Shown: positions 14,576 to 31,239 of the stretch, piece by piece
Layout: each line of letters begins with the position of its first letter
Numbering within the stretch: the stretch's first letter is position 1
IMG/VR virus record: IMGVR_UViG_3300044491_002865
Span: 1-33,295 of that record
DNA length: 33,295 bases
Source: a virus
Direction: 5' to 3' (one strand)
Position numbers and translations under genes: made by a program
Notes under the pieces: model-generated
The model's input: only the letters and a program-made list of their open reading frames with translations
What the model was told of the DNA's origin: nothing
The model's database searches: none

Positions 14576-17500
14576 ATGCCAATTCAAACTACCCAGCCTA
14601 AGAACACCTACGTAAGAAAGGTAATAGTTGGTACACCCATAAGAAAAGTTACTTCGGGTTCACTATCAATTAATAATCTTGCTGGGGTCACTATTAACAA
14701 TGCGGTTGAAAATGATCTTCTTCAGTATGACTCGGCATCAGCTAGTTTTGTTAATAGGCAGGAGCTCCAACGTCTTCAGATTGATCAGATCACTCTTGAC
14801 AGTGATACTATATCCCTTACAAATAATCAACTTAATATTAGCGGTAGTGTTGATGTAACAGGCAATCTTGGTCTATCGGGTATTGGATCGGCAAATGTCT
14901 TTAGGCAGTCTAATCTTGGAGCCTTTAATGATTCTGACCTAACCACAAAACTATATGTGGATAATGAGGTTGATAAAGTAAAGCATGTCATCTTTAAGAC
15001 TGATGATAACTTTACAGATTCTATTAATATCTATGACGCCGAAACATTGAGAATTATTGGTGGCAATTCTATTAGTACTTCGGCCACTAAAATTGGATCA
15101 GAATATAGACTTGTACTTGATGTTGATTCAACAGGAGTTACGCCAGGTCAATATGGTTCAGGAGCTCAGGTACCAGTCTTAACCATAAATGATCAGGGCC
15201 AAGTTACGGCCATCAATACGGTTGCAGTTGCTGGTGTTACGAATCTGGAATATGATTCATCTGATAATAGTGGTGTTATCACCATATCCACTGCTGATGG
15301 CCAAACCTTTTCTTCGTCAGTTACTCTAAATCCTTTTTCCACAAATGATCTAAAGGAAAGTGATAACCTTTACTATACAAGGACCAGATTTGATTCTGCC
15401 CTAGGAGATGCTACTTCTATATCTACCATTAGAGGTATGATTAGTACTTCGGGTGACCTACAGTATAATGCTAATACTGGTGTAATTTCAGTAGACATTC
15501 AACAGGTCTATACTTCAGATGACTTTGACTCCGATCTGGATGATGCGATCGCCAATAGCGTTAACATTCATTGGTATCCCGATTCTAATTACTTCGATCT
15601 TAATGTAACTGGTGTAGATTCGGGAACATATGGTTCTACTACACAGATTCCAACATTTACAGTTGACAAGTATGGACGTTTGTATGACATTGATACGGTT
15701 GCTGTAGCTGGTGTAGATTCTACCAGCTGGCTATCGGGTACAAATACCTTTAGAATTAATACTGCTGACGGTCAGTTCTATGATACAGTATTCGATTCTT
15801 TTGGCACCGACATAAGATTAAAAGACAATGTTAACCTAACCCTAGGAAACGTTGATGGATTTGATGTAGATCTTTACCATGACGGTACAAATTTTATTGC
15901 AAAAAATAATGCCTCGGGTAACATAGAAGTATTATCTGATACCCAAAGATTTTTAACTCGGTCGGGTAATACGTTATTTGACGCAGCCGAAATCGGTAAT
16001 GGTGTAAGATTATTTTATAATTCAATAGAGCGACTTCAGACTACCGATAGTGGCCTTAATGTAACGGGTAATATATTACCTGATGTTGATTCTTCTTACG
16101 ATCTAGGCTCATCAAATCGTAAATGGAAAGATCTATATCTTTCTGGGCAATCAATATACCTTGGCAATTTAATATTAAAAGATTCCGCTGGTGGACTTGC
16201 CATCAAAAATTCAAACGGTGATGCGGTTGATCTGGTTGCCAAGCATGCTAGATTTGATTCTGCATTTATTTCCCAACTATCGGTAGATAGTCTTAATGTA
16301 TCTCAGCTGCACATTGATTCGTCTTTTGTAAATAACTTTAATATAGTTTATATGGAAGCTAATACTGCAGAGATACAACAATTAGCCGTTGATTCTATTT
16401 CTGCTCAAACACTAAATGTTATAACAGGTGATATTGATCAATTCACTAGCGACTCATCATTTATCCAACAACTAAATGTTGTTTCTGGAGATATCGATAC
16501 CCTTACATCTACTAATGCCATAATTGATTCTATATACGCAGGTCAGTTAAATGTTGCTATTGGTGATATCGATACGTTTACTTCATCCAACGCCATAATT
16601 GATTCTGCTCTTATATCAAATCTTAATGTTTTAGTAAGCGATATAGACACTGCAATACTGGGGCAGGTTACTATTGATTCTGCCGCAATTACTAACTTGT
16701 CGGCCGATACATTAGATATTACAACGGTTCTTATTGATTCAGCCACAATAACTAATATAGCCGCCACAACCGTAAATATTGATTCCGCAACAGTTAATGC
16801 AATAGCAATAGGCAATGCTAATGTAAATAATGCAGAAATTGATTCTGCCTTCATATCAACCATCAGTAGTGTTTCGGGTGATATTGATTCGGCATCTATC
16901 ACTAATTTAGCGGTAGTTACAGCCAACATTAATACGGCCGGCATTAATGCGGTTGATATTACTACGGCCTCTATTGATTCGGCCACAATAACTAATCTCG
17001 CAGCAACAACTGCAACCATAGATTCGGCTACTGTAGATACTTTGGCGTCTAGTGCCATCAATGCAGCCAATGCAGATATTGATTCGGCCTTCATATCAAA
17101 CCTCAATGTTATAACAGGTGATATAGACACCGCAACACTTGGTCTCGTAACTGCTGATTCTGCGACAATAACCAATCTTGCGGCTTCGGCCTCTATAACT
17201 AATACTCTTACGTCTGACTCTGCATCCATAACAAATCTTGCTACTTCAACTGGTATTGTAGGACAGTTAACATCAGACTCTGCCTTTGTTACCCAATTAA
17301 ATGCTAATAATAGTCACATAGATGATCTAAGCGCAGATAGTATACATACAACCCAATTGAATGCGTCTATGGCGCATATAGACGCTCTAACAGCCGATTC
17401 AAGTAGCATTACTACCTTAGCAACGACTACTGGTATAGTCAATCAACTTACATCTGTATCGGCATCGATCAATCAAATTGCATCAGACTCGGCAGCAATT

Positions 17501-20500
17501 GCACAAATATCTTCTGCAAAATTACTTACTGATTCTATCGAAGCCGGCAGATCAAGTCTTGGATATATTGAATTAGATGCAGCTAGTTATTCAGACCTTA
17601 CACCACCATCATTAGATGAGGGGGCCATATGGTATAACTCCGGGCCCGATGCTTTGGTCTATAGATCTTCAACTAGTAGTGCAGTTAAGATAGGTCAAGA
17701 AGAAGTAACAAGGGTCTTCAATAATTCTGGTAGTCAAATTGATAAGGGCAAGGCCGTATATGTTACGGGTGCATCAAATGACTTTCCAACTGTAGCCCTG
17801 GCAAGAGCCAATAGCCTTGGTACAGTCTATAAGACTTTGGGTCTAACAAAAGATGATATTCCGGCAAGTCAATATGGTCTGGTAATTAACAGAGGTTTAG
17901 TCGGTGGATTGGATACCCAATCCTTCTCCGTGGGTGATGTAGTACACGTATCGGTTGATTCCGCGGGTGAATTAATTTCAAGTAATCCAGTCTATCCTAA
18001 CTATGCAGTTGAAATAGGTACCGTATTAGTTTCTCAGGCCCCAAATGTTGGTATAGGCGGATGTATTCAGGTTTCTATTACAAAAGAGATTGTTGAGACT
18101 CTTCGGGTAGCTGGTGATGGTAGAATCGATGCTGACCTAACAATTGGTGGTAACCTAAACGTACTAGGTACCGAAACCCGAACGGCCGTATCAAATCTTA
18201 ATGTTGCAGATACATTTATCTACCTAGGCGCAGGTGATACGATAGGCGCCGGCAATACAAACTTTAATGGTACTGGTGACCAAAACGCAACATTCACTGG
18301 TCATTATAAGGGTGATAGTGACGAGACCTTTAGAGTACGTATTAGTGCCGTAGGTGGTGATACAATTGAATGGGCTTTAGACAGTTGGGGAGCAGGGACT
18401 CTACCATTTGATTCAGCCGCAGGTCCAACTACATGGAATCTTACAAATGATGGATTAATTGCTCCTTTAAATTATGGTATTTCTATAGACTTTGATGCCG
18501 CCACTGGGCATGATCTTAATGACAGTTGGCATGGATCTGCATCTCCGGTTAATGTTCAGATAGGTCTGGCCGGTAACTATAACGAGCCCGACGATATATA
18601 TCGCCATGCAGGTGTCTTTAGGGATATATCGGATGGTACCTGGAAATTCTTTGATAACTATACTCCAGAACCATCGGGCAATATTAACACGGCACATGCT
18701 ACTTTTTCTTATGCGGACCTACGAGCCAAAGATATAACGGGAACCACAATTGAAGCATCAGTAGGCTTTACGGGCACCTTGACCGGTACAGCATCCGATA
18801 TTTCAAATCACACTACTACGAATCTGGCTGAAGGTTCTAATCTCTATTATACATCTACTAGGGCCAACACTGATTTTGATACTAGACTTGGTACCAAATC
18901 AACAACAAACCTGTCTGAAGGTACCAACCTTTACTATACATCTACTAGGGCCAACACTGACTTTGATACTAGGTTAGCCACTAAGTCAACTACTGATTTA
19001 TCTGAAGGTTCTAATCTTTATTATACTCAGGGTAGATTTGATACTGCATTTACTGCCAAGTCAACTACTGATTTATCTGAAGGTTCTAATCTTTATTATA
19101 CTACTACTAGAGCCAACACCGACTTCGATACTAGACTTGGCACCAAATCAACAACAGATGTTGCGGAAGGTACCAACCTTTACTATACAAAGGTCAGAAC
19201 AGATTCTGACATTAATCAAGGATTTGCCGACAGAACTACAGATAACCTAACTGAAGGTTCTAATCTCTATTATACATCCACTAGAGCAAACACTGACTTC
19301 GATACCAGATTGGCCCTTAAATCAACAGATAATTTATCAGAAGGATCGACAAATCTTTACTATACAGATGCTCGTGCAGATTCGGACGCTAAGAATGCCA
19401 TAAGTGTTTCTGGTGATCTATCATATGATCCTTCTACGGGTATCATCAGTCTTGATGTAGAAGATGCATACACCAAGGCTAATTTCGATAGTGATTTAGG
19501 AACAGCCTCAACCTCAGACCTACCAGAAGGCACTAATCTCTACTATACTGATACCAGAGTAAGACAAGCAATTTCTGCTTCTGGTGATCTATCTTATGAT
19601 CAGGGAACTGGTAATTTTTCGATTGACGTTGAAGAAATCTATACTGCAGCAAACTTTGATTCGGACTTTGGAACGGCCATTCAAACTATTGATGGTAATT
19701 TAGTTCCAGCAATTAACGAGACATATGATTTAGGTGATTCAAACTATCGTTGGAAAGATTTGTATCTCTCTGGAAACACAATTGATATTGGTGGCACTCT
19801 TATATCCGTCGACTCACATGATGGTGGTGTAAGGTTCCACAATCCATCATTTGATAGAGTGGCCATGAGAGGCCTGGAAATTGATCTAGGTGGCACTGGT
19901 ACAAAAATTACTCTTAAGAAACACAGCACAAATGGTTTGTTACAGGTAGTTGATTCAGATGATACTCAACTAAAATATGACCTATCACAACAAACAACAG
20001 ATAGTTTGGGTGAAGGTTCTTTAAATCTTTACTATACAACAACTAGAGCTAATAGTGACATCGATGCTAGGTTGGTTGGTGGCACTGGCATTACAGTGGC
20101 GTCTGGTGATATTTCAATTACTAATACAGCGGTAACTGCTGGGGCATATGGCGATGCCTCTAATATACCAACATTTACGGTTAATGATCAAGGCCAATTG
20201 ACAGCTGCTGGTACAGTAGCAGTTGCGGGTGTATCATCTACAGCGTTTGATTCAGCATCAGGTGTAATGACAATTAACACGGCTGATGGCGGGGCATTTA
20301 ACACTATTATAGCCGACTCTGACTTTACAGTTAAGAGAGCCAGAGAAGCATTTAGTGCGGGCACTGGTGTTACATTGTCTAATGGTGTCATCTCAATTGA
20401 ACAGGATGTTGATAGTACCGGTACGTTTGAAGTAGATAAAGCTCTAGTTGATAAGTTAGAAGTTTCATCGGATAGTGAAGGTTCTTATCACATTGAGAAC

Positions 20501-21028
20501 AATGTTGTAATGAGAACAATTGCTCAGCATAGTGATAGCGCTGGTGGTAATCTAATTATTGACATTTATATGAGAACAGACTTTAAGACTGAATCCCACA
20601 GATATTATGAAAACGGATCCGCCAAGGGGTACTACCTGGCCTGGAAACAAGAAGATCTTCGGACTGCCCGTGAGTTCCAGTCACCTCATTTAGATCTTGT
20701 TCCGGGGCAGACCTACAGATTTTGGGATGAAGACTCATCAATGGTAACACATGATTTAAGATTCTTCTATGATGATGCAAGGTCTGGAACATATAATGAT
20801 TCTGACGTTGTTTACAATGCAACTGCTGCTGGTACTGCTGGATCCTATTCACAGATCTCAATCGATCAATACACACCAAGAACACTTGCATATCAATGTT
20901 TAAATCATCCATACATGGGTAACAGCTTTAACACAAACACTAATGCCGGTGGTAGAATGAAGGGTACATCAACTGGCATAGCAATTGATGGTAATATAGA
21001 AGCAACAATTGATGGTGGTACCTATTAG
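14576..21028 (+). CDS. giant repeat tail fibre with C-terminal cupredoxin-like domain
   Basis: 2150 aa. The N terminus (about 1-100) is an attachment region. Shaft modules of cyanophage type follow, including TKLYVDNEVDKVKHV, twice TVAVAGV, and WKDLYLSG twice (about 521 and 1726). Residues about 557-988 are a Ser/Asp/Ile/Ala-rich short repeat built on IDSATITNLAA. About 1040-1170 is a small beta module (KGKAVYVTGASNDFP, GDVVHVSVDSAGEL). Ten NLYYT motifs occur, eight of them clustered at about 1413-1660. Residues about 2003-2125 form a cupredoxin-like domain with His2059, Cys2108, His2111 and Met2114. No S74 chaperone is present. CGGAGAA precedes the ATG. It is the largest gene here and probably a long side or whisker fibre. 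Confidence 0.82.
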   Translation: MPIQTTQPKNTYVRKVIVGTPIRKVTSGSLSINNLAGVTINNAVENDLLQYDSASASFVNRQELQRLQIDQITLDSDTISLTNNQLNISGSVDVTGNLGLSGIGSANVFRQSNLGAFNDSDLTTKLYVDNEVDKVKHVIFKTDDNFTDSINIYDAETLRIIGGNSISTSATKIGSEYRLVLDVDSTGVTPGQYGSGAQVPVLTINDQGQVTAINTVAVAGVTNLEYDSSDNSGVITISTADGQTFSSSVTLNPFSTNDLKESDNLYYTRTRFDSALGDATSISTIRGMISTSGDLQYNANTGVISVDIQQVYTSDDFDSDLDDAIANSVNIHWYPDSNYFDLNVTGVDSGTYGSTTQIPTFTVDKYGRLYDIDTVAVAGVDSTSWLSGTNTFRINTADGQFYDTVFDSFGTDIRLKDNVNLTLGNVDGFDVDLYHDGTNFIAKNNASGNIEVLSDTQRFLTRSGNTLFDAAEIGNGVRLFYNSIERLQTTDSGLNVTGNILPDVDSSYDLGSSNRKWKDLYLSGQSIYLGNLILKDSAGGLAIKNSNGDAVDLVAKHARFDSAFISQLSVDSLNVSQLHIDSSFVNNFNIVYMEANTAEIQQLAVDSISAQTLNVITGDIDQFTSDSSFIQQLNVVSGDIDTLTSTNAIIDSIYAGQLNVAIGDIDTFTSSNAIIDSALISNLNVLVSDIDTAILGQVTIDSAAITNLSADTLDITTVLIDSATITNIAATTVNIDSATVNAIAIGNANVNNAEIDSAFISTISSVSGDIDSASITNLAVVTANINTAGINAVDITTASIDSATITNLAATTATIDSATVDTLASSAINAANADIDSAFISNLNVITGDIDTATLGLVTADSATITNLAASASITNTLTSDSASITNLATSTGIVGQLTSDSAFVTQLNANNSHIDDLSADSIHTTQLNASMAHIDALTADSSSITTLATTTGIVNQLTSVSASINQIASDSAAIAQISSAKLLTDSIEAGRSSLGYIELDAASYSDLTPPSLDEGAIWYNSGPDALVYRSSTSSAVKIGQEEVTRVFNNSGSQIDKGKAVYVTGASNDFPTVALARANSLGTVYKTLGLTKDDIPASQYGLVINRGLVGGLDTQSFSVGDVVHVSVDSAGELISSNPVYPNYAVEIGTVLVSQAPNVGIGGCIQVSITKEIVETLRVAGDGRIDADLTIGGNLNVLGTETRTAVSNLNVADTFIYLGAGDTIGAGNTNFNGTGDQNATFTGHYKGDSDETFRVRISAVGGDTIEWALDSWGAGTLPFDSAAGPTTWNLTNDGLIAPLNYGISIDFDAATGHDLNDSWHGSASPVNVQIGLAGNYNEPDDIYRHAGVFRDISDGTWKFFDNYTPEPSGNINTAHATFSYADLRAKDITGTTIEASVGFTGTLTGTASDISNHTTTNLAEGSNLYYTSTRANTDFDTRLGTKSTTNLSEGTNLYYTSTRANTDFDTRLATKSTTDLSEGSNLYYTQGRFDTAFTAKSTTDLSEGSNLYYTTTRANTDFDTRLGTKSTTDVAEGTNLYYTKVRTDSDINQGFADRTTDNLTEGSNLYYTSTRANTDFDTRLALKSTDNLSEGSTNLYYTDARADSDAKNAISVSGDLSYDPSTGIISLDVEDAYTKANFDSDLGTASTSDLPEGTNLYYTDTRVRQAISASGDLSYDQGTGNFSIDVEEIYTAANFDSDFGTAIQTIDGNLVPAINETYDLGDSNYRWKDLYLSGNTIDIGGTLISVDSHDGGVRFHNPSFDRVAMRGLEIDLGGTGTKITLKKHSTNGLLQVVDSDDTQLKYDLSQQTTDSLGEGSLNLYYTTTRANSDIDARLVGGTGITVASGDISITNTAVTAGAYGDASNIPTFTVNDQGQLTAAGTVAVAGVSSTAFDSASGVMTINTADGGAFNTIIADSDFTVKRAREAFSAGTGVTLSNGVISIEQDVDSTGTFEVDKALVDKLEVSSDSEGSYHIENNVVMRTIAQHSDSAGGNLIIDIYMRTDFKTESHRYYENGSAKGYYLAWKQEDLRTAREFQSPHLDLVPGQTYRFWDEDSSMVTHDLRFFYDDARSGTYNDSDVVYNATAAGTAGSYSQISIDQYTPRTLAYQCLNHPYMGNSFNTNTNAGGRMKGTSTGIAIDGNIEATIDGGTY
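16244..17539 (+). repeat. IDSATITNLAA-type short repeat region in the giant fibre
   Basis: Roughly residues 557-988 repeat a short unit of alternating hydrophobic and Ser/Thr/Asp/Asn residues (IDSATITNLAATT, IDSAFISNLNVITGDID). The regular pattern suggests a beta-helix or beta-solenoid shaft. DNA copies are diverged, though recurrent ATTGATTC and CTAATCTTGC words remain. The same composition leaves a long open frame on the opposite strand, which is a by-product. Confidence 0.7.
18812..19390 (+). repeat. tandem NLYYTSTRANTDFDTRL repeats (about 29 aa each)
   Basis: Seven consecutive copies of a unit of 25-30 residues (TTDLSEGSNLYYTxTRANTD then FDTRLGTKS), about 87 bases each. Nucleotide identity between several copies is high, for example TCTAATCTTTATTATACT. 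Three more diverged NLYYT copies lie at about 15360, 19540 and 20027 in the same gene. Such units are typical of cyanophage fibres. Confidence 0.8.
20582..20950 (+). other. cupredoxin-like domain (copy 1, divergent) in the giant fibre
   Basis: Residues about 2003-2125. The order is LVPGQTYRFWDEDSSMVTHD, a variable loop, then TLAYQCLNHPYMGNSF. Potential type-1 copper ligands are His2059, Cys2108, His2111 and Met2114. It is close to a widespread marine phage module whose members I recall only as uncharacterised. Copper binding is inferred from the residue pattern. Confidence 0.6.
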
Positions 21029-21034
21029 AACTCT

Positions 21035-21042
21035 TATAAATA
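21035..21042 (+). promoter_or_regulatory. T4-type late promoter box TATAAATA
   Basis: Exact box in the 64-base gap between the giant fibre and the next gene, 50 bases before the ATG at 21093. It shares AACTCT upstream with the box at 14141 and ATGACA downstream with the box at 14088. It probably starts the late transcript of the adhesin block. Confidence 0.75.
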
Positions 21043-21092
21043 ATGACAAGTAGGATTTTTATCCAATTAACTTACCTTTTTAGGACTTAGAA

Positions 21093-22301
21093 ATGGCAGC
21101 AAATATTAAGCTCAAGAGATCGGCTGTTATTGGCAAACAGCCACAACCAGTAGATCTAGACTATGGAGAACTAGCTCTTAATTATAGCGATGGGGTGCTT
21201 TACTATAAAAATGCATCCAATGCAGTATCCAGTATTTCTGGTGGTGGTGCCACTACAGATAGTGCTGCGCCAGTCTCTTCTTTGCGGGATGGTACTCTTT
21301 GGTGGGATGCCACTAACGGCAAGTTAAAGATTTACTATGTAGATGAAGATGCCCAGACTTCGCCCCAGACCATAAGTCTTACATCAAATGCTAGTGGCAA
21401 TCAAAATTATGAAATTACGGGATCTGATAGGGCCACAACCTTTACTGGTACAGCAGACCCTAATATCTATATTATTCAGGGTGACACACTACAAATTACT
21501 CAGAATAGTGACTTCACCCATCCTATGTATTTTGTTACTCAACTTAGTCTTTCCAATTCCTATGATGCCCAGTATAATGTTCCTGGAGTAACAAACCAGG
21601 GAGCTTATGGTGGTGTCGTTATATCACATCAATTTAATAGTGTCGGCACCTTTTATTACATTTGCTCATCACATCCACATATGGTTGGAGTTATTAATGT
21701 AGTTGCTGCTGATACGGCCGCCGCTCAATGGGTCGACGCATCTATAGCATCTGTAGGATATACTGGGTCGGCTGGTGCCATATTCCAAGGTGAAACAGCA
21801 CCTTCCAATCCTACAGATGGTCAAATTTGGTATGATAGTACTACCGGTAAGTCTTTTATTTACTATACAAACCCATCAACCGCACAATCACAATGGGTAT
21901 TGCAAGCAGACCCCACTGTAACTGATGGAGATACTGGTTATTCTGGATCAAGAGGATTTACCGGATCACAGGGTGTAATTTCTCCAAAGTTTGTGTCTAT
22001 TGAAAGTCCTACTTCTGGGCAGACCAAAACCCTAATGTATAACTTTAGTGCTACTACAGTTAGTGTCGTACGTGCTGGTATTTCTGGAGGTACTAGTGTT
22101 GCATATAGTGTTTATCATGATGCGGCAAGAAATGGCTCAGGTACTGTTATAGCAGCAGAAACTACAACCAATGCAACAAGTGGATCAACTCCAACAATTA
22201 TATCAGCTTCGGTACCTGCCGGTAGTTGGATATGGGTAGAGACCACCACTGTTACGGGCACAGTTAATGAATTTAATTTAAGTATAGAATTTACGGAGTA
22301 A
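21093..22301 (+). CDS. modular fibre/adhesin: WWD modules, cupredoxin-like insert, collagen-like hinge, beta head
   Basis: 402 aa. Residues 1-48 (IKLKRSAVIGKQP, DLDYGELALNYSDGVLYYKN) are a common phage fibre attachment leader. DGTLWWDATNGKLKIYY (66-82) and DGQIWYDSTTGKSFIYYTN (242-260) are two copies of one small module. The first is interrupted by a cupredoxin-like domain (about 95-206; His143, Cys191, His194, Met197) before its closing AAAQWVDA. Short collagen-like pieces follow ([20 protein letters not shown]), then a beta-sandwich head of about 110 residues. A late promoter lies at 21035, and TAGGAC precedes the ATG. It is likely an accessory tail or head fibre; its receptor is unknown. 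Confidence 0.75.
   Translation: MAANIKLKRSAVIGKQPQPVDLDYGELALNYSDGVLYYKNASNAVSSISGGGATTDSAAPVSSLRDGTLWWDATNGKLKIYYVDEDAQTSPQTISLTSNASGNQNYEITGSDRATTFTGTADPNIYIIQGDTLQITQNSDFTHPMYFVTQLSLSNSYDAQYNVPGVTNQGAYGGVVISHQFNSVGTFYYICSSHPHMVGVINVVAADTAAAQWVDASIASVGYTGSAGAIFQGETAPSNPTDGQIWYDSTTGKSFIYYTNPSTAQSQWVLQADPTVTDGDTGYSGSRGFTGSQGVISPKFVSIESPTSGQTKTLMYNFSATTVSVVRAGISGGTSVAYSVYHDAARNGSGTVIAAETTTNATSGSTPTIISASVPAGSWIWVETTTVTGTVNEFNLSIEFTE
21375..21710 (+). other. cupredoxin-like domain (copy 2) inserted in a WWD module
   Basis: Residues about 95-206 run YEITGSDR, IYIIQGDTLQI, DFTHPMYFVTQ, then VGTFYYICSSHPHMVGVINV. Potential ligands are His143, Cys191, His194 and Met197, in the canonical order. The flanks on either side complete one WWD module. 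Confidence 0.7.
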
Positions 22302-22304
22302 GAT

Positions 22305-23276
22305 ATGGCAGCTCTAACATTTCCAGCAGCTCCTGCACATTTATCTACATACACAGATCCCAGCCAGGCAATATGGCAATGGGACTCTGATGGTCCCGTA
22401 TGGAATGTAATTACTTCTACCACACGTAAAAATTTTAGTGGAGCCAAAAGAGAAGTAATTAATACTGGATTTTCCATAACAAATACTTTTTTACCTCTAG
22501 AGTTTGAGACCGAAATTTACGAAGTAGATAATTATTTTATTAATTCTAATTCCGCGGCTACAGCACCAACCACTGGATTTTATGGGGTGGCAGCAACTAT
22601 ACTTTCGGGTACACAAGGTTCTGGATCATCCTATACGGCAGAACTGCGAGTCAATAATATAAAAAATTCCGAAATACAATTTGGGCCAAACCAATCGGTT
22701 ACTATAGATGATACACTTGAACTTGTACAGGGTGATGTAGTAGAAATATATGTGAAAGAAACAATTGGTGTTGGTGAGATATTACAGGCTTCGACGTTCA
22801 CTATGTATCGTATTGGTTTTTCTCCAGGCACAGGAATAAGTAATCATAATGCCTTTAGTGGTGTAAAGGCTATTATTACACAGGTATTTAATACTACCTC
22901 TGTACCACAAGCCATAACTTGGGGTACGACATCATTTAATGCTAACGCTAACGTGCTTGGCGATCTCTATTGGTATTCCGCCGTACAGGAAAGGGTTACC
23001 ACAAGGGCTAGTGGTTATTATAAATTGAAATCCTTTATAAAGGCAGGAATTGCAGGATCAAATGATTCATATACAATCACAGTAAAAAAGAATAGAAATT
23101 TAGGATCAGAAGCCGACCTGTATACTATTACCCTAGGTCCTAATGATTTTGTACAATTAAATGAAACAATCTATCTTTTAGAAGATGATTTTTTAGAACT
23201 TATGGTATCAAACAGTGACAACACAGGTAATGTCACTACAGATACATATTTAGAGCTCGTCAGGGAAGGATTATAA
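22305..23276 (+). CDS. tandem C1q-like jelly-roll adhesin
   Basis: 323 aa. The leader MAALTFPAAPAHLSTY ... WDSDGPVWNV (1-35) is an anchor also used by the collagen-like gene at 28879 ([16 protein letters not shown] ... YDSDTTSW). Two similar beta domains follow (about 45-185 and 190-322). Each runs SGxK...I, a strand pair around an Asn-rich loop, GxYxVxA/GYYKLKSFI, a charged strand, then LELVQGDVVEIYV or YLLEDDFLELMVS, and a closing strand. This topology resembles C1q/TNF-type receptor-binding heads. Call by fold pattern only; no residue-level match is claimed. ACGGAG precedes the ATG at 22305, and the next gene starts two bases after the stop. Confidence 0.6.
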   Translation: MAALTFPAAPAHLSTYTDPSQAIWQWDSDGPVWNVITSTTRKNFSGAKREVINTGFSITNTFLPLEFETEIYEVDNYFINSNSAATAPTTGFYGVAATILSGTQGSGSSYTAELRVNNIKNSEIQFGPNQSVTIDDTLELVQGDVVEIYVKETIGVGEILQASTFTMYRIGFSPGTGISNHNAFSGVKAIITQVFNTTSVPQAITWGTTSFNANANVLGDLYWYSAVQERVTTRASGYYKLKSFIKAGIAGSNDSYTITVKKNRNLGSEADLYTITLGPNDFVQLNETIYLLEDDFLELMVSNSDNTGNVTTDTYLELVREGL

Positions 23277-23277
23277 A

Positions 23278-23646
23278 ATGGCGTTTGTTAAATCAACAAG
23301 TACTCTCTCGGCCGATGCTGTTACGGTTCCTGGACTTTCAGGGGGTGATAATGGTAAGGTAGTTAGAATGACCGGAGCCAACACCCTAACCAATGCAGCT
23401 AATACCGATACAGTGACACAATTAATGTCATTACTAATAAAAATTGGTGGGGAGTATTATGCTTCTGGAACAGTGTCTGGGTTTACGGGGCTGACCCCAG
23501 GATCACCATACTTTCTAGATGCTACTGGAGGTATTGTATCTTCACCCCCCACACCAAGTAGTATTACAAGAGCAGTCACAATTGGATTTGCTATTAATTC
23601 AACTGATATTGTCTTTAGACCAGGAATACCTATTTCAGGAACATAA
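23278..23646 (+). CDS. small beta-rich structural protein
   Basis: 122 aa. The pattern GDNGKVVRMTGANTLTNA (about 22-39), then GGEYYASGTVSGFTGLTPGS (about 58-77), YFLDATGGIVSSPPTP and a closing VTIGFAINSTDIVFRPG is a small beta module seen at the ends of phage fibres and decoration proteins. A related arrangement sits inside the 2150-aa fibre near residues 1040-1170 (KGKAVYVTGAS, GDVVHVSVDSAGEL). Here it is a separate gene with a strong GGAAGG ribosome site, between the C1q-like and propeller genes. A role as fibre tip or trimer cap is inferred. Confidence 0.55.
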   Translation: MAFVKSTSTLSADAVTVPGLSGGDNGKVVRMTGANTLTNAANTDTVTQLMSLLIKIGGEYYASGTVSGFTGLTPGSPYFLDATGGIVSSPPTPSSITRAVTIGFAINSTDIVFRPGIPISGT

Positions 23647-23649
23647 TTA

Positions 23650-26600
23650 ATGACCATTGCTAATATAACTAGGGAAACCTCCCTTACCGATTCTGACTAT
23701 CTGGGTTTACCGGTTATGCATCATATTGCTGCTGATGGATTTTGGTACCACTATAAACCGTCAGATAAAGTAAATAACGCTACATTGGCTGGCAATGCAA
23801 TTGTACCGTATCAGTGGGATTCTGCACTACCAATTGGTTCGGGTTCATTGGCTTCCGGTGGTGGTATTGAACTTGATGGTACATTTGCCTTTATAGACGA
23901 AGAACACAATGGTTCAACTCTAAAATATCATGGTGGATGTATACAGCATATTGGCGCTGGAATAAATGATATTACCAACATTACAGAAAATAATGCTTTC
24001 TTTATGGCGCATATTGGTACATGGGGTGATGATGGACCCACCACGGGCGGTCTTTTAGAAGATGATGCATTTTACTGGGATAGGCTTTATCAAACTACCG
24101 CTGGTGGTGATTGGAACTTTTATCAATATCACAAACACTTGCCTTCAAACTATGCTCAGTTTGATGATGGACGTTTAGTATGGGATGCTGATGGATATAT
24201 AAGATCTGCAGATAAGCAGTACGGCTATATGATTACGATTAGGGCAACATCCGGTGGGGCTTCCTATAATGTCCCATTGGCTCGTATTCACACTCCTTCA
24301 ATTGGTGGGGCTCACAATTCTCACAATGATGTTACATTACCTTCAGTAGCAGGTGTAAACTATCTTGCAGGGGGTATTTTAAAGGGATCATCAAATAGAT
24401 TCCATGCATTCTATATGGACTCTTCATCTACTGCAGGTGAATGGAATGTATATTCTAGAACCTTTACTTCCTCATCTGGATCCTTTACTCCCCAGGTCAA
24501 CTATGGTTCATATGATCTAGCAACACCTACGTTCACTCCATATCCAGGAGGTGGAGCAGAGAGCGAAGGGGCTTTAAGTCAGTATCCATTAAGAGCATCC
24601 GCTGGACATACTTTTGGGTCTTATGTCTATTGGCCCACAATTATAAAGGCTCAACCCATAAATTTTGGTGACCTAGTCGTTACTTCAAATGGCGGTAATG
24701 TATATCAACTTAATGGTAATGATCGTCAGAATCCTGGGTCAGCTGGGGCTCTATTACTTGATGGTAACAATAACAATCCAACCGTAAGGATAAAGGTCGG
24801 AGATACCATAAGACTGGCATTTGCTAGTTCTGGTACAGCATCTACTCACCCCCTTTATATAAAAACCACCACCCAGTCTAATACCAACGATCAGGCTGTG
24901 GGTGTATCGGGCAATGGGACTCAATATATAACATTTACTCCTGAATCAGCAGGTACCTACTATTATGTCTGTGTTGTACACAATGGCATGTATGGTGTTA
25001 TTGAGGTTACGGATCTAGATGGTACATTTGACACCCAAATATGGAGAGTGACTGATGCCAATACCATTTCTCCTGGTACACTAGAACGTATTGATTTACC
25101 ATGGTACTATAAAGCAACCCCTGAAAGACCTGACGTGTTATTGACAAGTGTTGGATCAAAGATATACGTTGCTAGCTCCGGGTCATTAAGAGGCGGGGTT
25201 GATCTATTCAGCGCGCCTATTATTGATTCATCTGGAGATTTATACGATGAGGGACAAATTGTAACCAATACAATTGCTAATGATTTAAGAGTTCATGGGT
25301 TTAAGTATAATGCATCTAATACAAAGTTCTATGCATTGCTTAGTGGTACAAGTGGGGTTGGATCATATAGTGGTAAAGGTCTATACAGCTTTGATTTAGC
25401 GGGCGGATCATTTGAAGGATATGATCATTTAGATTATGATGTTTCTACTGGAACATATATTACTAAGGGGCCCAATACTTCGGGTCATATAATGTATAAC
25501 CATTCTGATGCTTCTATGACAAAGAAAACTACTATAGAACCAGAAGGTATTGCCCAAGGAACATCAATTTTACAATATCAGATTGCTTCGCCTCAATTTT
25601 ATAATAAGACGGAAGTAAATACAGGGTATGAAGAATACTACTTCCAGGGCATCTACCTATCAGATGGTCGTAAGGCTCTAGTGGGACAGATCAGGTCGAA
25701 TCCCCAAAATACAGGTCTGGGAGGAGATCTACTTCTTACAATTATTGATAATGAAAATAATGATATTAGTTACACCTACACGGCCGAGGGTGATGACTAC
25801 ATCACAGGTATTATTGAGGATGTTGAAAATAATCGAATAGTATTATCAGGATATGCTAAGGGTGAGCTTACAACCAAGGGCGCACAGGGTATACATGGAT
25901 GGGGTAGAAATTTAAAGGAGAATGCTGATTCTGCGGATCAAGCATTTACCGGAATATTCAAAAAAGATGATCATGGATTTAAGTTGGTTGGTAATGACCG
26001 AAGACAGAAAAAAGCATTCATAAGTAATTTTGATAAGGACTACAATTATATCAATAGTAAGATATTATCAGTGGGACCTGATTCTGATGTTATTGATACT
26101 GTTACACCATTAGCTAATAATAAAGATTATATTATTTCTGGCTGGACTAGAAATGCAACTTCGGATAAAGATGCATTTATGGCTAGATTAGATTCCGCTG
26201 AAAATGTTATTTGGTCAAAAAGATTTAACATTAGTAATGCATATAATGCATTTACTTCTCATGCAATTGTTGATAACAATGGCACCGAGAATATCGTAGG
26301 GTTTTTTACTAATGAATCTGGTGATGATTCAACCCAGTCTTATGGTGTGTTGACTGTCTTGAATACTTCAGGTAATATAACAGATAATGCAGTGACCGCA
26401 TATACTGAGGGTAATTTTTATCTCAATAAAATTAGACCTGGCAGACCAGGTAGTGGTGAATTTTTATTCGCAGGTTCAGATACTACGAGCAATTACAGAG
26501 CTCCAAGTTGGGGAATAGGAAATGTCAATTCTGCAAATCTAATTGACTATATAAGACACCACTCTTGGTCAACTACCGCTGTCGCAGATGCTCAGGCCTT

Positions 26601-28875
26601 TAACGTAATTGAAGCCGGTTATAATGATATTACTCTTAACCGGTACGATTCAGACAATCAAAGATATAAGATAATGGTTGCTGGGAAGCGAGAAGATACA
26701 TCATTGGCCGATGGTGCAGGCCAGGCGGTGATGCACACTTCCCGAGATCACAGATCCTTTGCGATCGCAGGTAGTTATGATTTAAGAGATAGTGGGGGCA
26801 CTTGGGTTTCGGATACTAGATGGGAAAGGCAATATCTTTCTCCAACAACGGGTGCCTATTTAGAGGAAATAACCACCATTTTATCAGAAGATTCTTCCAG
26901 AAGAGAATGGTGGTATAATGATATTGATGAACATCCAAATCCAGGAAATCATAGAGTAATTGCCCTGGCTACAGGACTTAATTTGGATTCGGCTGCAGAG
27001 CAAAGCTTTGGAATGCAGATGAGAGCTGGGACCGCTGTTCTGGGTATTAATGATTCCGATGGATCACTATACTTCTCTAATTCATTGGGACACATGGGTG
27101 AAGACTATATTAATAATGATATGGTTTGGGATGAAAAGGGTCTAAACTTTGTTTTTTGTGGTAGTTCTACATCACACTCATATGGTAGAGATGCCTTGAT
27201 GTTTAGACAGATGAAGGATGGTTTCGGGACCGGTGTATACCACACAAGTTACTCTACATCAAATGCCTACTATTATGATTCAAATAATTTATCAGCAGTA
27301 AACGAAACGATTTTAAATAGTAATTCTACAGGGATTCAGATTACTAATAAGACATCAACAACTGTTGATAATATTACACTACCCGCCTCTACTATTAGTA
27401 ATGATTATTACCATACAGAGTATAATGGTTCTTATGGTGCAAATGGATTGTTCACGGGATTTTTGGCATATGTAGATCTGGCCGATCTACAAACGTTCCT
27501 TAACTCAGATACATATCAGGAAGAAGTTGATAGAGGGCTAAGAGTTCATGCCGCTAACAGTATCTTTAATATATTCCAACTTTCCACTGTAGGTGATGCT
27601 ACGGCAGATGATGGAAATATATTTGCCTACGATGTCCTCAAGTCATCAGACGGTGAGTACTATTATACGGGTGGTCAGATTTCTGGAAATATGTCATTTA
27701 CTAATACTGGCCTATCCGGTGTCTATGATTATTGGTTGGGGCAATTTAATATTGATACTAATGAATGGAGATTCTGGCAAAATGGTTCTTTTGAAGATGA
27801 AGAAATCTATGCTTTAGAGGAACTTAGAGGATCAACTCCTTCTAACCTTGTTGAGGATCCTAATGCAACCAATAATGGTGCAGTAAATGGAACCGTAACA
27901 TGGATACCTACAACCGCTGGTACCTATTATTATCAATGTGGCAATCATAGCTCAATGGTAGGACAAATCACGGTAACAGATGTACAGGGGTCACCATCGA
28001 CCATTAACCTTAATGCAGGTGCAGTATTTACAGACGCCCTTTATTGGTCTATTTCTGGAACCGACAGATCAACAACTCATAGTTCTGCACTGAATCCTAC
28101 TATTACGATTGACACCGGAGACACTCTTAATATATCGGTATCAACCACAGGAAGCAATCATCCATTTTATATTCAGGTGACTCCGGGGATTTCTCCAAAG
28201 GCTGGTAACATAGCATTTGCTGGTAGGACAACTGGCACCCTAGCAGGTGCATCTTCCTTGATTGGAGGATATGATTTATTCTTAGGTATTTTTAATCCGG
28301 GTACATGGAGCTCTGAATATTATGTAAATGGTTCGGGCTTTAATGATAAGGTAATGAACCTTCATGATATTAATGACACAATTCCTAATACTCTAGCTCT
28401 TGTGTATACCTCATTTGGTTCTGTAAATGGTTCGAATGTATTCGGTTCTGAAGACATTGGTATCATAACCTTTAATTACGCTACAGATACCTGGTCTACA
28501 GGATTTAACACAGGATCTGAGACATCAGAAGAAATCGAACAGAATGGTAGCCCATCGACCAGATTGTCTGATGGTAGAATAGGTGTTGTGTGTAATACAG
28601 CAGGGGCTTTTGCTGATGATGCTAATACATTTGGTCTTAAAGATATGGGACTTGGTATATTTGATTTTGATAGTGATGGCAATGGTAACTATAGTGGATG
28701 GTCTAAATACCAAGTAGGTTCAGGATCATCAGACTTTTCTTTTAGTGTAGATAATAATGGTTCTACATTCCTAGTAACAGGATATTCAGAAGCAACATGG
28801 GATAGAGCAGTACATGGTGTTTTTGTAGAATTCGACCCCGAAAAAGGGTACTTAGCGAAATCCGCAGGGAGTTAA
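23650..28875 (+). CDS. giant beta-propeller protein with two cupredoxin-like inserts
   Basis: 1741 aa. Most of the chain repeats units of about 55-65 residues with a hydrophobic strand plus Gly (ALVGQIRSNP, RIVLSGYAKG, DYIISGWTRN, FLFAGSDTT, YYYTGGQISG, IAFAGRTTG, ALVYTSFGS, FLVTGYSEA), a D-rich turn and a F/I-x-x-F/Y-D strand, typical of propellers of Kelch/SBBP type. Two cupredoxin-like domains interrupt it: about 341-456 (His400, Cys441, His444, Met447) and about 1401-1520 (Cys1430, His1433, Met1436, then His1504, order reversed). No signal peptide, membrane segment or protease motif is seen. CAGGAA lies before the ATG at 23650. Probably a carbohydrate- or surface-binding virion adhesin. 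Confidence 0.7.
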   Translation: MTIANITRETSLTDSDYLGLPVMHHIAADGFWYHYKPSDKVNNATLAGNAIVPYQWDSALPIGSGSLASGGGIELDGTFAFIDEEHNGSTLKYHGGCIQHIGAGINDITNITENNAFFMAHIGTWGDDGPTTGGLLEDDAFYWDRLYQTTAGGDWNFYQYHKHLPSNYAQFDDGRLVWDADGYIRSADKQYGYMITIRATSGGASYNVPLARIHTPSIGGAHNSHNDVTLPSVAGVNYLAGGILKGSSNRFHAFYMDSSSTAGEWNVYSRTFTSSSGSFTPQVNYGSYDLATPTFTPYPGGGAESEGALSQYPLRASAGHTFGSYVYWPTIIKAQPINFGDLVVTSNGGNVYQLNGNDRQNPGSAGALLLDGNNNNPTVRIKVGDTIRLAFASSGTASTHPLYIKTTTQSNTNDQAVGVSGNGTQYITFTPESAGTYYYVCVVHNGMYGVIEVTDLDGTFDTQIWRVTDANTISPGTLERIDLPWYYKATPERPDVLLTSVGSKIYVASSGSLRGGVDLFSAPIIDSSGDLYDEGQIVTNTIANDLRVHGFKYNASNTKFYALLSGTSGVGSYSGKGLYSFDLAGGSFEGYDHLDYDVSTGTYITKGPNTSGHIMYNHSDASMTKKTTIEPEGIAQGTSILQYQIASPQFYNKTEVNTGYEEYYFQGIYLSDGRKALVGQIRSNPQNTGLGGDLLLTIIDNENNDISYTYTAEGDDYITGIIEDVENNRIVLSGYAKGELTTKGAQGIHGWGRNLKENADSADQAFTGIFKKDDHGFKLVGNDRRQKKAFISNFDKDYNYINSKILSVGPDSDVIDTVTPLANNKDYIISGWTRNATSDKDAFMARLDSAENVIWSKRFNISNAYNAFTSHAIVDNNGTENIVGFFTNESGDDSTQSYGVLTVLNTSGNITDNAVTAYTEGNFYLNKIRPGRPGSGEFLFAGSDTTSNYRAPSWGIGNVNSANLIDYIRHHSWSTTAVADAQAFNVIEAGYNDITLNRYDSDNQRYKIMVAGKREDTSLADGAGQAVMHTSRDHRSFAIAGSYDLRDSGGTWVSDTRWERQYLSPTTGAYLEEITTILSEDSSRREWWYNDIDEHPNPGNHRVIALATGLNLDSAAEQSFGMQMRAGTAVLGINDSDGSLYFSNSLGHMGEDYINNDMVWDEKGLNFVFCGSSTSHSYGRDALMFRQMKDGFGTGVYHTSYSTSNAYYYDSNNLSAVNETILNSNSTGIQITNKTSTTVDNITLPASTISNDYYHTEYNGSYGANGLFTGFLAYVDLADLQTFLNSDTYQEEVDRGLRVHAANSIFNIFQLSTVGDATADDGNIFAYDVLKSSDGEYYYTGGQISGNMSFTNTGLSGVYDYWLGQFNIDTNEWRFWQNGSFEDEEIYALEELRGSTPSNLVEDPNATNNGAVNGTVTWIPTTAGTYYYQCGNHSSMVGQITVTDVQGSPSTINLNAGAVFTDALYWSISGTDRSTTHSSALNPTITIDTGDTLNISVSTTGSNHPFYIQVTPGISPKAGNIAFAGRTTGTLAGASSLIGGYDLFLGIFNPGTWSSEYYVNGSGFNDKVMNLHDINDTIPNTLALVYTSFGSVNGSNVFGSEDIGIITFNYATDTWSTGFNTGSETSEEIEQNGSPSTRLSDGRIGVVCNTAGAFADDANTFGLKDMGLGIFDFDSDGNGNYSGWSKYQVGSGSSDFSFSVDNNGSTFLVTGYSEATWDRAVHGVFVEFDPEKGYLAKSAGS
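24670..25017 (+). other. cupredoxin-like domain (copy 3, canonical order)
   Basis: Residues about 341-456 run VYQLNGNDR, VRIKVGDTIRLAF, STHPLYIKTT, YITFTPESAGTYYYVC, then VVHNGMYGVIEV. Potential ligands are His400, Cys441, His444 and Met447. The flanks (VYWPTIIKAQPINFGD and FDTQIWRVTDAN) read as one propeller unit when the domain is removed. Confidence 0.7.
27853..28200 (+). other. cupredoxin-like domain (copy 4) with halves in reversed order
   Basis: Residues about 1402-1517. The C-terminal half comes first (GTVTWIPTTAGTYYYQC then GNHSSMVGQITV; Cys1430, His1433, Met1436). The N-terminal half follows (YWSISGTDR, PTITIDTGDTLNISV, SNHPFYIQVTPG; His1504). Swapping the halves back gives a complete domain resembling copy 3, so it reads as a circular permutation. 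Confidence 0.65.
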
Positions 28876-28878
28876 TAA

Positions 28879-31239
28879 ATGGCGGCCTTAAACTTTCCAA
28901 TTAATCCAAGTCATAATGATACGTATTCAGCGAATGGTACTTCATACCTATATGACTCGGATACTACATCATGGGTAGCCGATCAATTTATAGGTTATAC
29001 AGGATCCCAAGGTTTTACGGGATCTAAAGGGGCTGGCTTTACAGGGTCTCGAGGTAATCTTGGATTTAGTGGGTCGGTGGGCTTTACGGGTTCCATAGGA
29101 TTTACTGGGTCGCGAGGTTTTACCGGATCTGCTGCAGCTCAGGGTCTAAAGTATGACGCCGACATAAGTACCACAACCCTTAACACTATATCAACGGGGC
29201 GTATAGGTTGGAACAATGCTACTCTAACATCTGCAACTCAGGTTGGTATACATAGAACCTCTTCAGATTCACAAGATAATATTAACTATCTAAACACATT
29301 TGATGATTATGGCGGCACGACCGACCGTGGTTATCTAATGATAAGATCTGCGGATGCTAACTCTTCTGATTTCCTACTCTACAGGGTTACGGGTAATAGT
29401 TCCTTAAATAATAGTGTAATGATATTTGATACCACCTACCTTGGAGGTACAGCCACCCCTATTACGGGTGAAGGTATGATTATTACCTATATTCACAGAG
29501 GTAATTCTGGATTTGTTGGGTCTCAAGGTAATATAGGATTCTCAGGATCAAGGGGATTTACTGGGTCGCAAGGTGTCATAGGATTTACGGGTTCTCAAGG
29601 TGATCAAGGTGTCATAGGATTTACGGGTTCTCAAGGAGATCAAGGTGTAGCTGGTGTAAGTGGTACTGGGGGTGGATTGTTTGGCCTTGTAGGTGAAAAA
29701 TCCACTACTCCTGGGGCGGGCGACTACCTTTCATTTGGTAGTGGGGCTACAGCAAATATATATGGTGTAAAAATCCCAGAAGTAATGATACTTGATAGTA
29801 TTACCGTTACTACTCAAAACGTGGTAACCTCTAATCTACAGATTTCAATCCGCAGGGGTGGAGTTGCAATTGCAACGGCTACGGTTGTTTTTGGCGATAA
29901 TGACACCAGAGTATCTAATATAGGTGTTTCAATAAACGCTGATGATGAAATATCAATACGCTGCGATGCCCCAGCAACTGGATCAGGGGCTGTCATTGCA
30001 ACGGCTTGGTTTGCGACTAATGGGGCAAAGGGTTATACAGGTTCTCAGGGTATACAGGGTATACAAGGCGCTACGGGTTCCCAGGGACCCATAGGTTATA
30101 CTGGATCGCAAGGTATACAAGGTATTCAGGGTGATGTTGGATTTACAGGATCTAAGGGAAATACAGGTTCCCAGGGACCCATAGGTTATACTGGATCGCA
30201 GGGTATACAAGGTCCTACGGGTATTCAGGGGCCTATAGGCTATACTGGATCTAAGGGTATTCAGGGTATACAAGGTATTCAGGGTATACAAGGACCCACG
30301 GGCCCACAAGGGCCTATAGGTTATACGGGATCTAAGGGAAATACAGGTTCTCAGGGACCCATAGGTTATACAGGATCACGAGGATCAGACGGTACATCAA
30401 TTGCTATTCAAGGAACTGTTGCAACAGTAGGCAATTTACCATCAACTGGGAATACTGCTGGCGATGCATATATTGTTACGGCAAGTGGTAATCTTCATGT
30501 ATGGACTGGATCAGCATGGACTGATGCAGGGCAGTTTGCTGGCTATACAGGATCTCAGGGAAATACAGGTGCTACGGGTCCTGGGGGAGCTACGGGCCCT
30601 ACTGGCCCTCAGGGACCTATAGGATATACGGGATCTAAGGGAAATACAGGTAGCACGGGCCCTGGAGGCCCTGCAGGCCCTACTGGACCTCAGGGGCCTA
30701 TAGGATATACGGGATCCAAAGGAAATACAGGTAGCACTGGCCCTGGGGGATCTACTGGACCTCAGGGTCCTCGGGGTTATACAGGATCTAGGGGAAATAC
30801 TGGTGCTACGGGCCCTGCAGGTCCTGGGGGAGCTACTGGTCCTGGGGGAGCTACGGGCCCTGCGGGTCCTCAGGGACCTATAGGCTATACGGGATCCAAG
30901 GGAAATACAGGCAGCACTGGCCCTACTGGGCCTGGTGGCTCTCAGGGTCCTCGAGGTTATACTGGATCCAAGGGAAATACAGGTTCTACGGGCCCTGGAG
31001 GAGGCACTGGTCCTCAGGGTCCTCAAGGTTATACGGGATCTAAGGGAGATACAGGTCCTGGAGGCCCTGGAGGCCCTGCGGGTCCTGGAGGTTCTCAGGG
31101 CCCTCGAGGTTATACGGGATCCAAGGGAAATACAGGAACTACAGGAGCTACGGGCCCTGCGGGCCCTGCGGGTCCTGCTGGAGCATCAGGGTCAACGTCA
31201 GTTGAAAAGGCTGTTGCCTATGCTATTCTATTTGGATAA
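28879..31239 (+). CDS. collagen-like fibre protein with two interspersed beta domains
   Basis: 786 aa. The anchor leader [16 protein letters not shown] (1-16) is shared with the C1q-like gene. Gly-x-y stretches lie at about 39-86, 211-262, 385-504 and 555-771. They change from GFTGSxG units to Pro-rich [20 protein letters not shown] units. Between them are a beta domain (about 88-208), a second one (about 265-380: [20 protein letters not shown] ... [12 protein letters not shown]), and a small module at about 508-552 ([32 protein letters not shown]) common in phage collagen-like fibres. The chain ends [15 protein letters not shown] without a head domain. It probably makes a trimeric rod. AGGGAG precedes the ATG at 28879. 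Confidence 0.82.
29572..29643 (+). repeat. 36-base tandem repeat in the collagen-like gene
   Basis: Two adjacent 36-base copies (29572-29607 and 29608-29643) encode [12 protein letters not shown] twice and differ at a single base (GGT versus GGA codon). This is the freshest duplication seen in the gene and keeps the Gly-x-y register. Confidence 0.85.
30541..31191 (+). repeat. Pro-rich collagen-like repeat block
   Basis: Eight units, each starting GYTGSKG or a close variant, with lengths of 24, 27 or 36 residues, so always multiples of three. The DNA carries recurrent GGATCTAAGGGAAATACAGG and GGGCCCTG words and is richer in GC than its surroundings. Open frames in other frames and on the other strand here are by-products of the repeat. 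Confidence 0.8.

What the first reader, a model, noticed from the sequence alone, without database searches (positions are those of the whole stretch)
20582..28200. Four cupredoxin-like domains with full copper ligand sets in phage fibre and adhesin genes
Three neighbouring genes carry four copies of one module. All keep a His followed or preceded by C-x2-H-x2-M, the pattern of a type-1 copper site: H2059/C2108/H2111/M2114, H143/C191/H194/M197, H400/C441/H444/M447, and C1430/H1433/M1436/H1504. The sequences around them differ while all four ligands are kept, which suggests selection for metal binding. Cys is otherwise rare in these fibres. A copper or redox role on a virion surface (host copper scavenging, redox sensing, metal-locked stability) would be unusual. 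The motif is seen directly; copper binding is inference.
Basis: partly seen in the sequence, partly recalled or inferred. Interest (0 to 1): 0.8.

Follow-up and report, generated by a model that had tools for sequence, protein, structure and literature searches.

The report
Copper-type cupredoxin modules in phage fibres
The tail-fibre genes of this marine virus carry four small domains of the blue-copper protein kind with complete copper-binding residues, one of them with its two halves naturally swapped in order, which points to metal-carrying tail fibres in many ocean phages although metal binding itself has not been measured.

Summary
Three tail genes carry four cupredoxin modules, each with all four type-1 copper ligands (His, then Cys-x2-His-x2-Met). 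A profile that leaves out the window and its closest relatives finds them at E = 1e-29, 3e-22 and 8e-19, and as two halves at 4e-15 and 2e-13. AlphaFold2 models one intact module at pLDDT 96. Its closest solved structures are type-1 copper proteins, and a fibre-only profile also recovers cyanophages' own plastocyanin (PetE). With a ligand-masked profile, 87 of 93 non-redundant viral modules keep all four ligands and the other six lose three or four together, so the site is kept or lost as a unit. The module is widespread in tail proteins of marine cyanophages, pelagiphages and methylophages, and in marine flavobacterial surface proteins. Four sequence lineages share this order with all ligands kept. 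The best match of its model, though modest (Z 5.2), is a laboratory-made circularly permuted azurin. Copper occupancy and function (a metal-stabilised or receptor-facing fibre bead is likeliest) are inferred. No earlier report turned up in the open-access library searched.

The parts
14576..21028 (+). 2150-aa repetitive tail-fibre-like protein; carries module 1 near its C terminus
   Evidence: ORF; PHROG tail fiber protein 4e-24 over residues 2001-2144
20612..20929 (+). Cupredoxin module 1 (residues 2013-2118), tail-fibre C-terminal subtype; ligands H2059, C2108, H2111, M2114
   Evidence: held-out HMM 7.5e-19; homologues in tail fibres of P-SSM2, Bellamy, Mosig, Melnitz
21093..22301 (+). 402-aa fibre-related protein carrying module 2
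   Evidence: ORF; PHROG tail/long tail fibre matches to its N terminus
21384..21710 (+). Cupredoxin module 2 (residues 98-206); ligands H143, C191, H194, M197
   Evidence: held-out HMM 9.7e-30; AF2 pLDDT 96.2, pTM 0.89; type-1 copper proteins as best PDB matches
23650..28875 (+). 1741-aa large adhesin-like tail protein carrying modules 3 and 4
   Evidence: ORF; PHROG matches incl. baseplate wedge tail fiber connector
24679..25011 (+). Cupredoxin module 3 (residues 344-454); ligands H400, C441, H444, M447
   Evidence: held-out HMM 2.9e-22; Pfam PF00127 23.4 bits over cut-off 21.2
27838..28239 (+). Cupredoxin module 4 (residues 1397-1530), circularly permuted: C-terminal half first, N-terminal half second, between two repeat units of the host protein
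   Evidence: half-profiles in reversed order; same order in L083-L089, L232, L233; model strand order is a circular shift of the canonical one; best VIA match is engineered permuted azurin 5syd
27838..27978 (+). C-half of module 4 with C1430, H1433, M1436
   Evidence: HMM positions 63-106, 3.5e-15
28042..28236 (+). N-half of module 4 with H1504
   Evidence: HMM positions 8-71, 2.1e-13

Best explanation
The four segments are homologous cupredoxin domains of the plastocyanin/amicyanin kind, used as mobile modules in the tail-fibre and adhesin proteins of a marine T4-like myovirus. Shown by computation: the fold, the homology, the complete His/Cys/His/Met ligand set, its conservation or loss as a unit, its spread through marine phages, and one natural circular permutation conserved in a clade. 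Inferred: each module binds one copper ion (less likely another soft metal). As phage proteins fold in the copper-poor host cytoplasm, the site would mostly fill after lysis, outside the cell. Most likely role: the metal pins the Cys/His/Met loop to the opposite sheet and so stabilises a fibre bead or its exposed face, which helps the fibre endure seawater or contact the host surface; long-range electron transfer is less likely. Module 4 probably arose once from a tandem pair of modules by loss of the outer halves, and its new adjacent ends fit a loop of the host repeat.
For: Motif present, not chance; held-out profile. Canonical model pLDDT 96.2. Foldseek top matches type-1 copper proteins; VIA Z 11.9 to a nitrite reductase cupredoxin domain, about 10 to rusticyanin. 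Profile versus PDB sequences: plastocyanin 2e-8, amicyanin 4e-7, rusticyanin 2e-6, with ligands in register in the plastocyanin alignments shown. The fibre profile also finds annotated PetE of P-SSM2 and S-CAM1. With a ligand-masked profile: 84 of 93 modules score four ligands, three more are alignment artefacts that keep theirs, six have 0 or 1; pairwise loss association p from 1e-3 to 4e-7. Loci fetched without using any ligand: 19 of 20 informative have all four. In cultured phages the module sits in gp7, gp9, tail fibre and tail spike genes. Permuted clade: nine contigs besides the window, four distinct lineages with it, tree support 0.956, dN well below dS.
Against: No metal, spectroscopic or virion data. 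No coordinates were available, so ligand distances are inferred from homology. The permuted model is only fair (best pLDDT 74, the other four models 42-56) and part of its alignment was misplaced. Degenerate copies without the site persist in the same proteins, so metal is not needed in every copy. The first retrieval pattern included C and the second His, which favours intact copies. The cytoplasm has almost no free copper (general knowledge).
Confidence: 0.62

Rival explanations
1. The modules bind a metal for receptor or host-copper piracy: copper-loaded fibres are recognised by host copper-uptake surface proteins, a copper counterpart of the iron Trojan-horse idea.
For: Iron-binding HxH tail fibres and the Trojan-horse idea are published for marine phages (PMC11705849). 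Several fibre types of one virion carry the module.
Against: No host copper receptor evidence; module positions vary (near C terminus, internal, inside a repeat protein), not only at fibre tips; the module also sits at the C terminus of flavobacterial surface proteins.
Confidence: 0.12
2. Redox-active type-1 copper: the modules transfer electrons or sense redox state at the host surface.
For: Complete type-1 ligand set; close matches are redox proteins.
Against: The modules are embedded in long structural proteins with no recognised redox partner or other redox domain beside them.
Confidence: 0.08
3. Plain immunoglobulin-like structural beads: the cupredoxin fold is used for shape only and the ligands are an evolutionary remnant.
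For: A few degenerate copies with tyrosines or serines at the ligand positions persist.
Against: Ligand columns are among the most conserved of the domain (92-96% against a median column of 39%) and are lost together, not drifting singly.
Confidence: 0.13
4. The fourth module is not a permuted domain but two broken half-modules, or halves that pair between chains of a fibre trimer.
For: Only one of five AF2 models is confident; sequential Foldseek finds nothing significant.
Against: Both halves and all four ligands are kept at 52-80% identity between lineages with dN well below dS; the model's nine strands follow a circular shift of the canonical order; best VIA match is engineered permuted azurin.
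Confidence: 0.2

Closest known systems
Plastocyanin / amicyanin (Pfam PF00127 Copper-bind)
   Same: Fold, His...Cys-x2-His-(x)-Met ligand set in register, amicyanin-length C-x2-H-x2-M loop
   Different: Modules inside large phage tail proteins, not free electron carriers; module 4 is circularly permuted
Phage-encoded PetE plastocyanin of cyanophages
   Same: Detected by the same profile in the same genomes
   Different: PetE is a stand-alone photosynthesis gene of about 108-131 aa; the fibre modules are structural-gene parts
Engineered circularly permuted azurins (PDB 5syd, 5yt7)
   Same: Permuted cupredoxin; only Z>=5 match of the module 4 model
   Different: Laboratory constructs; module 4 is natural and conserved in a viral clade; match is modest (Z 5.2, 3.3 A over 86 residues)
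HxH iron-binding tail fibres (T4 gp37 tip; Alteromonas phage R22Y)
   Same: Metal in phage tail fibres
   Different: Different fold and ligand set; iron, octahedral histidines at a trimer axis
Marine flavobacterial surface proteins ending in the same module (L142-L221)
   Same: Same module with the same four ligands
   Different: Cellular; several begin like lipoproteins and carry DUF285, InlB-like or Ig-like repeats; nearly always one module per protein

Membership tests
Cupredoxin superfamily | Greek-key beta-sandwich of the cupredoxin fold | tested here: met
   Module 2 model: pLDDT 96.2; Foldseek and VIA best matches type-1 copper proteins. Modules 1 and 3 by profile homology
Pfam PF00127 Copper-bind | Profile score over the curated cut-off | tested here: inconclusive
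   Module 3 23.4 bits (cut-off 21.2), module 2 17.3, modules 1 and 4 none; relative in L089 38.6
Type-1 copper proteins | His, Cys, His, Met at the homologous ligand positions | tested here: met
   Profile alignment with plastocyanin; ligand counts
Type-1 copper proteins | Bound copper with intense absorption near 600 nm and narrow EPR hyperfine | not testable with these tools
   needs purified protein
Amicyanin-type ligand loop | C-x2-H-x2-M spacing | tested here: met
   all four modules
Canonical cupredoxin topology (module 4 only) | First His before the C-H-M loop, strands in canonical order | tested here: not met
   C-half precedes N-half; it is a circular permutation
Plastocyanin as electron carrier | Small stand-alone soluble protein | tested here: not met
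   modules lie in proteins of 402 to 2150 aa
HxH iron-binding fibre tips | H-x-H motifs at a trimeric fibre tip | tested here: not met
   the conserved set is H/C/H/M; only module 2 happens to hold H-P-H

The most novel reading that the evidence does not exclude
A naturally circularly permuted type-1 copper domain, the counterpart of a laboratory-made permuted azurin, is built into a phage adhesin, and marine phages widely carry copper on their virions in several different fibre proteins.
Probability: 0.45. Interest if true: 0.82.

Novelty: new variant of a known kind. Interest (0 to 1): 0.68.

Why it matters
Known metals in phage fibres are mainly iron in HxH tips. A copper-type site in gp7, gp9 and tail-fibre proteins of abundant cyanophages, pelagiphages and methylophages would add copper to virion chemistry and to the ocean copper budget, and it can be tested on phages already in culture. 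A natural permuted cupredoxin would show evolution doing to a blue-copper fold what protein engineers did to azurin.

Tried and rejected
Assembly artefact for module 4: rejected, the order is shared by nine further contigs, four sequence lineages in all. Chance motif: rejected. Free ligand loss: rejected. Two 'ECHM' rows and one 'HCAM' row are alignment artefacts (permuted modules whose His lies downstream; a C-x4-H-x2-M loop in L051). Three attempts to align canonical halves to the permuted module misplaced the N-halves; the least faulty alignment was used. Sequential Foldseek of the permuted model gave nothing significant, as expected of a permutation. Ten literature searches found no report of cupredoxin modules in phage tail fibres nor of a natural permuted cupredoxin; the library lacks most subscription journals, so this is weak evidence of absence.

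Full report
What is there. The window is a 33,295-base virus record with baseplate wedge and tail-fibre genes of a T4-like marine myovirus. A C-x2-H-x2-M motif never arose in 200 shuffles of the window's proteins. A profile built from viral relatives after leaving out the window and its nearest kin finds module 2 at 9.7e-30, module 3 at 2.9e-22, module 1 at 7.5e-19, and the two halves of module 4 at 3.5e-15 and 2.1e-13; reversed proteins give nothing below 0.14.

What it is. The AlphaFold2 model of module 2 is very confident (pLDDT 96.2, pTM 0.89). The best PDB matches by Foldseek are type-1 copper proteins and multicopper oxidases, led by a purple cupredoxin of the marine archaeon Nitrosopumilus. 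The structural aligner gives Z 11.9 to the cupredoxin domain of a nitrite reductase and about 10 to rusticyanin. A profile of 54 fibre modules matches plastocyanin (2e-8), amicyanin and rusticyanin by sequence, and in the plastocyanin alignments the four residues fall on the copper ligands. As a positive control, the same profile finds the annotated PetE plastocyanins of phages P-SSM2 and S-CAM1.

Are the ligands under selection? With a profile blind to the ligand columns, 93 non-redundant viral modules were scored. Eighty-four have all four ligands; three more have them but are scored short for alignment reasons; six have none or one. No clear case of a single free loss was seen in that set. 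Loss at any one ligand goes with loss at the others (Fisher p from 1e-3 to 4e-7; 20,000 shuffles never gave as many modules with three or more losses). These p-values ignore shared ancestry: the losers form only a few families. Nineteen of twenty informative modules found without using any ligand carry all four. Ligand columns stand at 92-96% against a median column of 39%. This is the pattern of a metal site, kept or given up as a unit.

The fourth module. Here the C-x2-H-x2-M half comes first and the His half second. The order is shared by L083-L087, L088/L089 and L232/L233, at 52-80% identity over the module between the pairs compared, with all four ligands kept and dN far below dS. Put back in canonical order, these modules form one clade (support 0.956), so the change probably happened once. 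The predicted strands are the canonical nine in circularly shifted order. The model is only fair: best pLDDT 74, core 79-92, and the other four models poor. Yet of 799 chains compared, the only one at Z 5 or more is a laboratory-made circularly permuted azurin (5syd, Z 5.2, 3.3 A over 86 residues), and the next is another (5yt7, Z 3.0). By eye, the module lies between two similar repeat units of the host protein (GVYDYWLGQF... and GGYDLFLGIF...), so its new ends would fit a loop; this last point is inference.

Where else. Cultured marine phages carry the module in proteins annotated as gp7 baseplate wedge (P-HM1), baseplate wedge tail fiber connector (ACG-2014g), tail spike and tail fibre (P-SSM2, Mosig, Melnitz, Baldr) and virion structural protein (S-CAM1, S-TIM5), and in an unannotated gene of the podovirus P-SCSP2; hosts include Prochlorococcus, Synechococcus, Pelagibacter and Methylophilales. 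In cellular genomes it is found chiefly at the C terminus of marine flavobacterial surface proteins, several with lipoprotein-like N termini; most of these form one clade. The predicted-structure library of viral proteins shows the same domain in cyanophage fibres and similar folds in giant viruses.

How it may work. Shown: fold, homology, ligand set, joint conservation. Inferred: one copper per module, filled mainly after the virion leaves the copper-poor cytoplasm. The likeliest role is a metal-stabilised or receptor-facing bead; copper piracy and electron transfer are less likely. Degenerate copies in the same proteins show the fold can stand without the site, so intact sites probably serve a purpose beyond folding, or serve stability only where it matters.

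Novelty. No open-access paper found describes cupredoxin modules in phage fibres or a natural permuted cupredoxin; published fibre metals are iron at HxH motifs (PMC11705849). The search library is incomplete.

Noticed in passing
28879-31239: 786-aa collagen-like fibre with many G-x-x / [13 protein letters not shown] repeats (Pfam Collagen 2e-52).
   Followed up: no
14576-21028: The 2150-aa fibre is built of two degenerate repeat types (IDSATITNLAATT-like and TSTRANTDFDTRLG-like) upstream of the cupredoxin module.
   Followed up: no
L043, L048, L077, L039, L071: Degenerate cupredoxin copies with Tyr or Ser in place of ligands lie in the same polypeptides as intact copies.
   Followed up: partly
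L142-L221: Marine Flavobacteriia carry the same module at the C terminus of surface proteins with DUF285 and InlB-like repeats, several starting with lipoprotein-like signals.
   Followed up: partly
L223 and BFVD hits: Records name such proteins 'contains PF07686' or 'Immunoglobulin domain-containing' where the profile shows cupredoxin modules; possibly misannotation.
   Followed up: no
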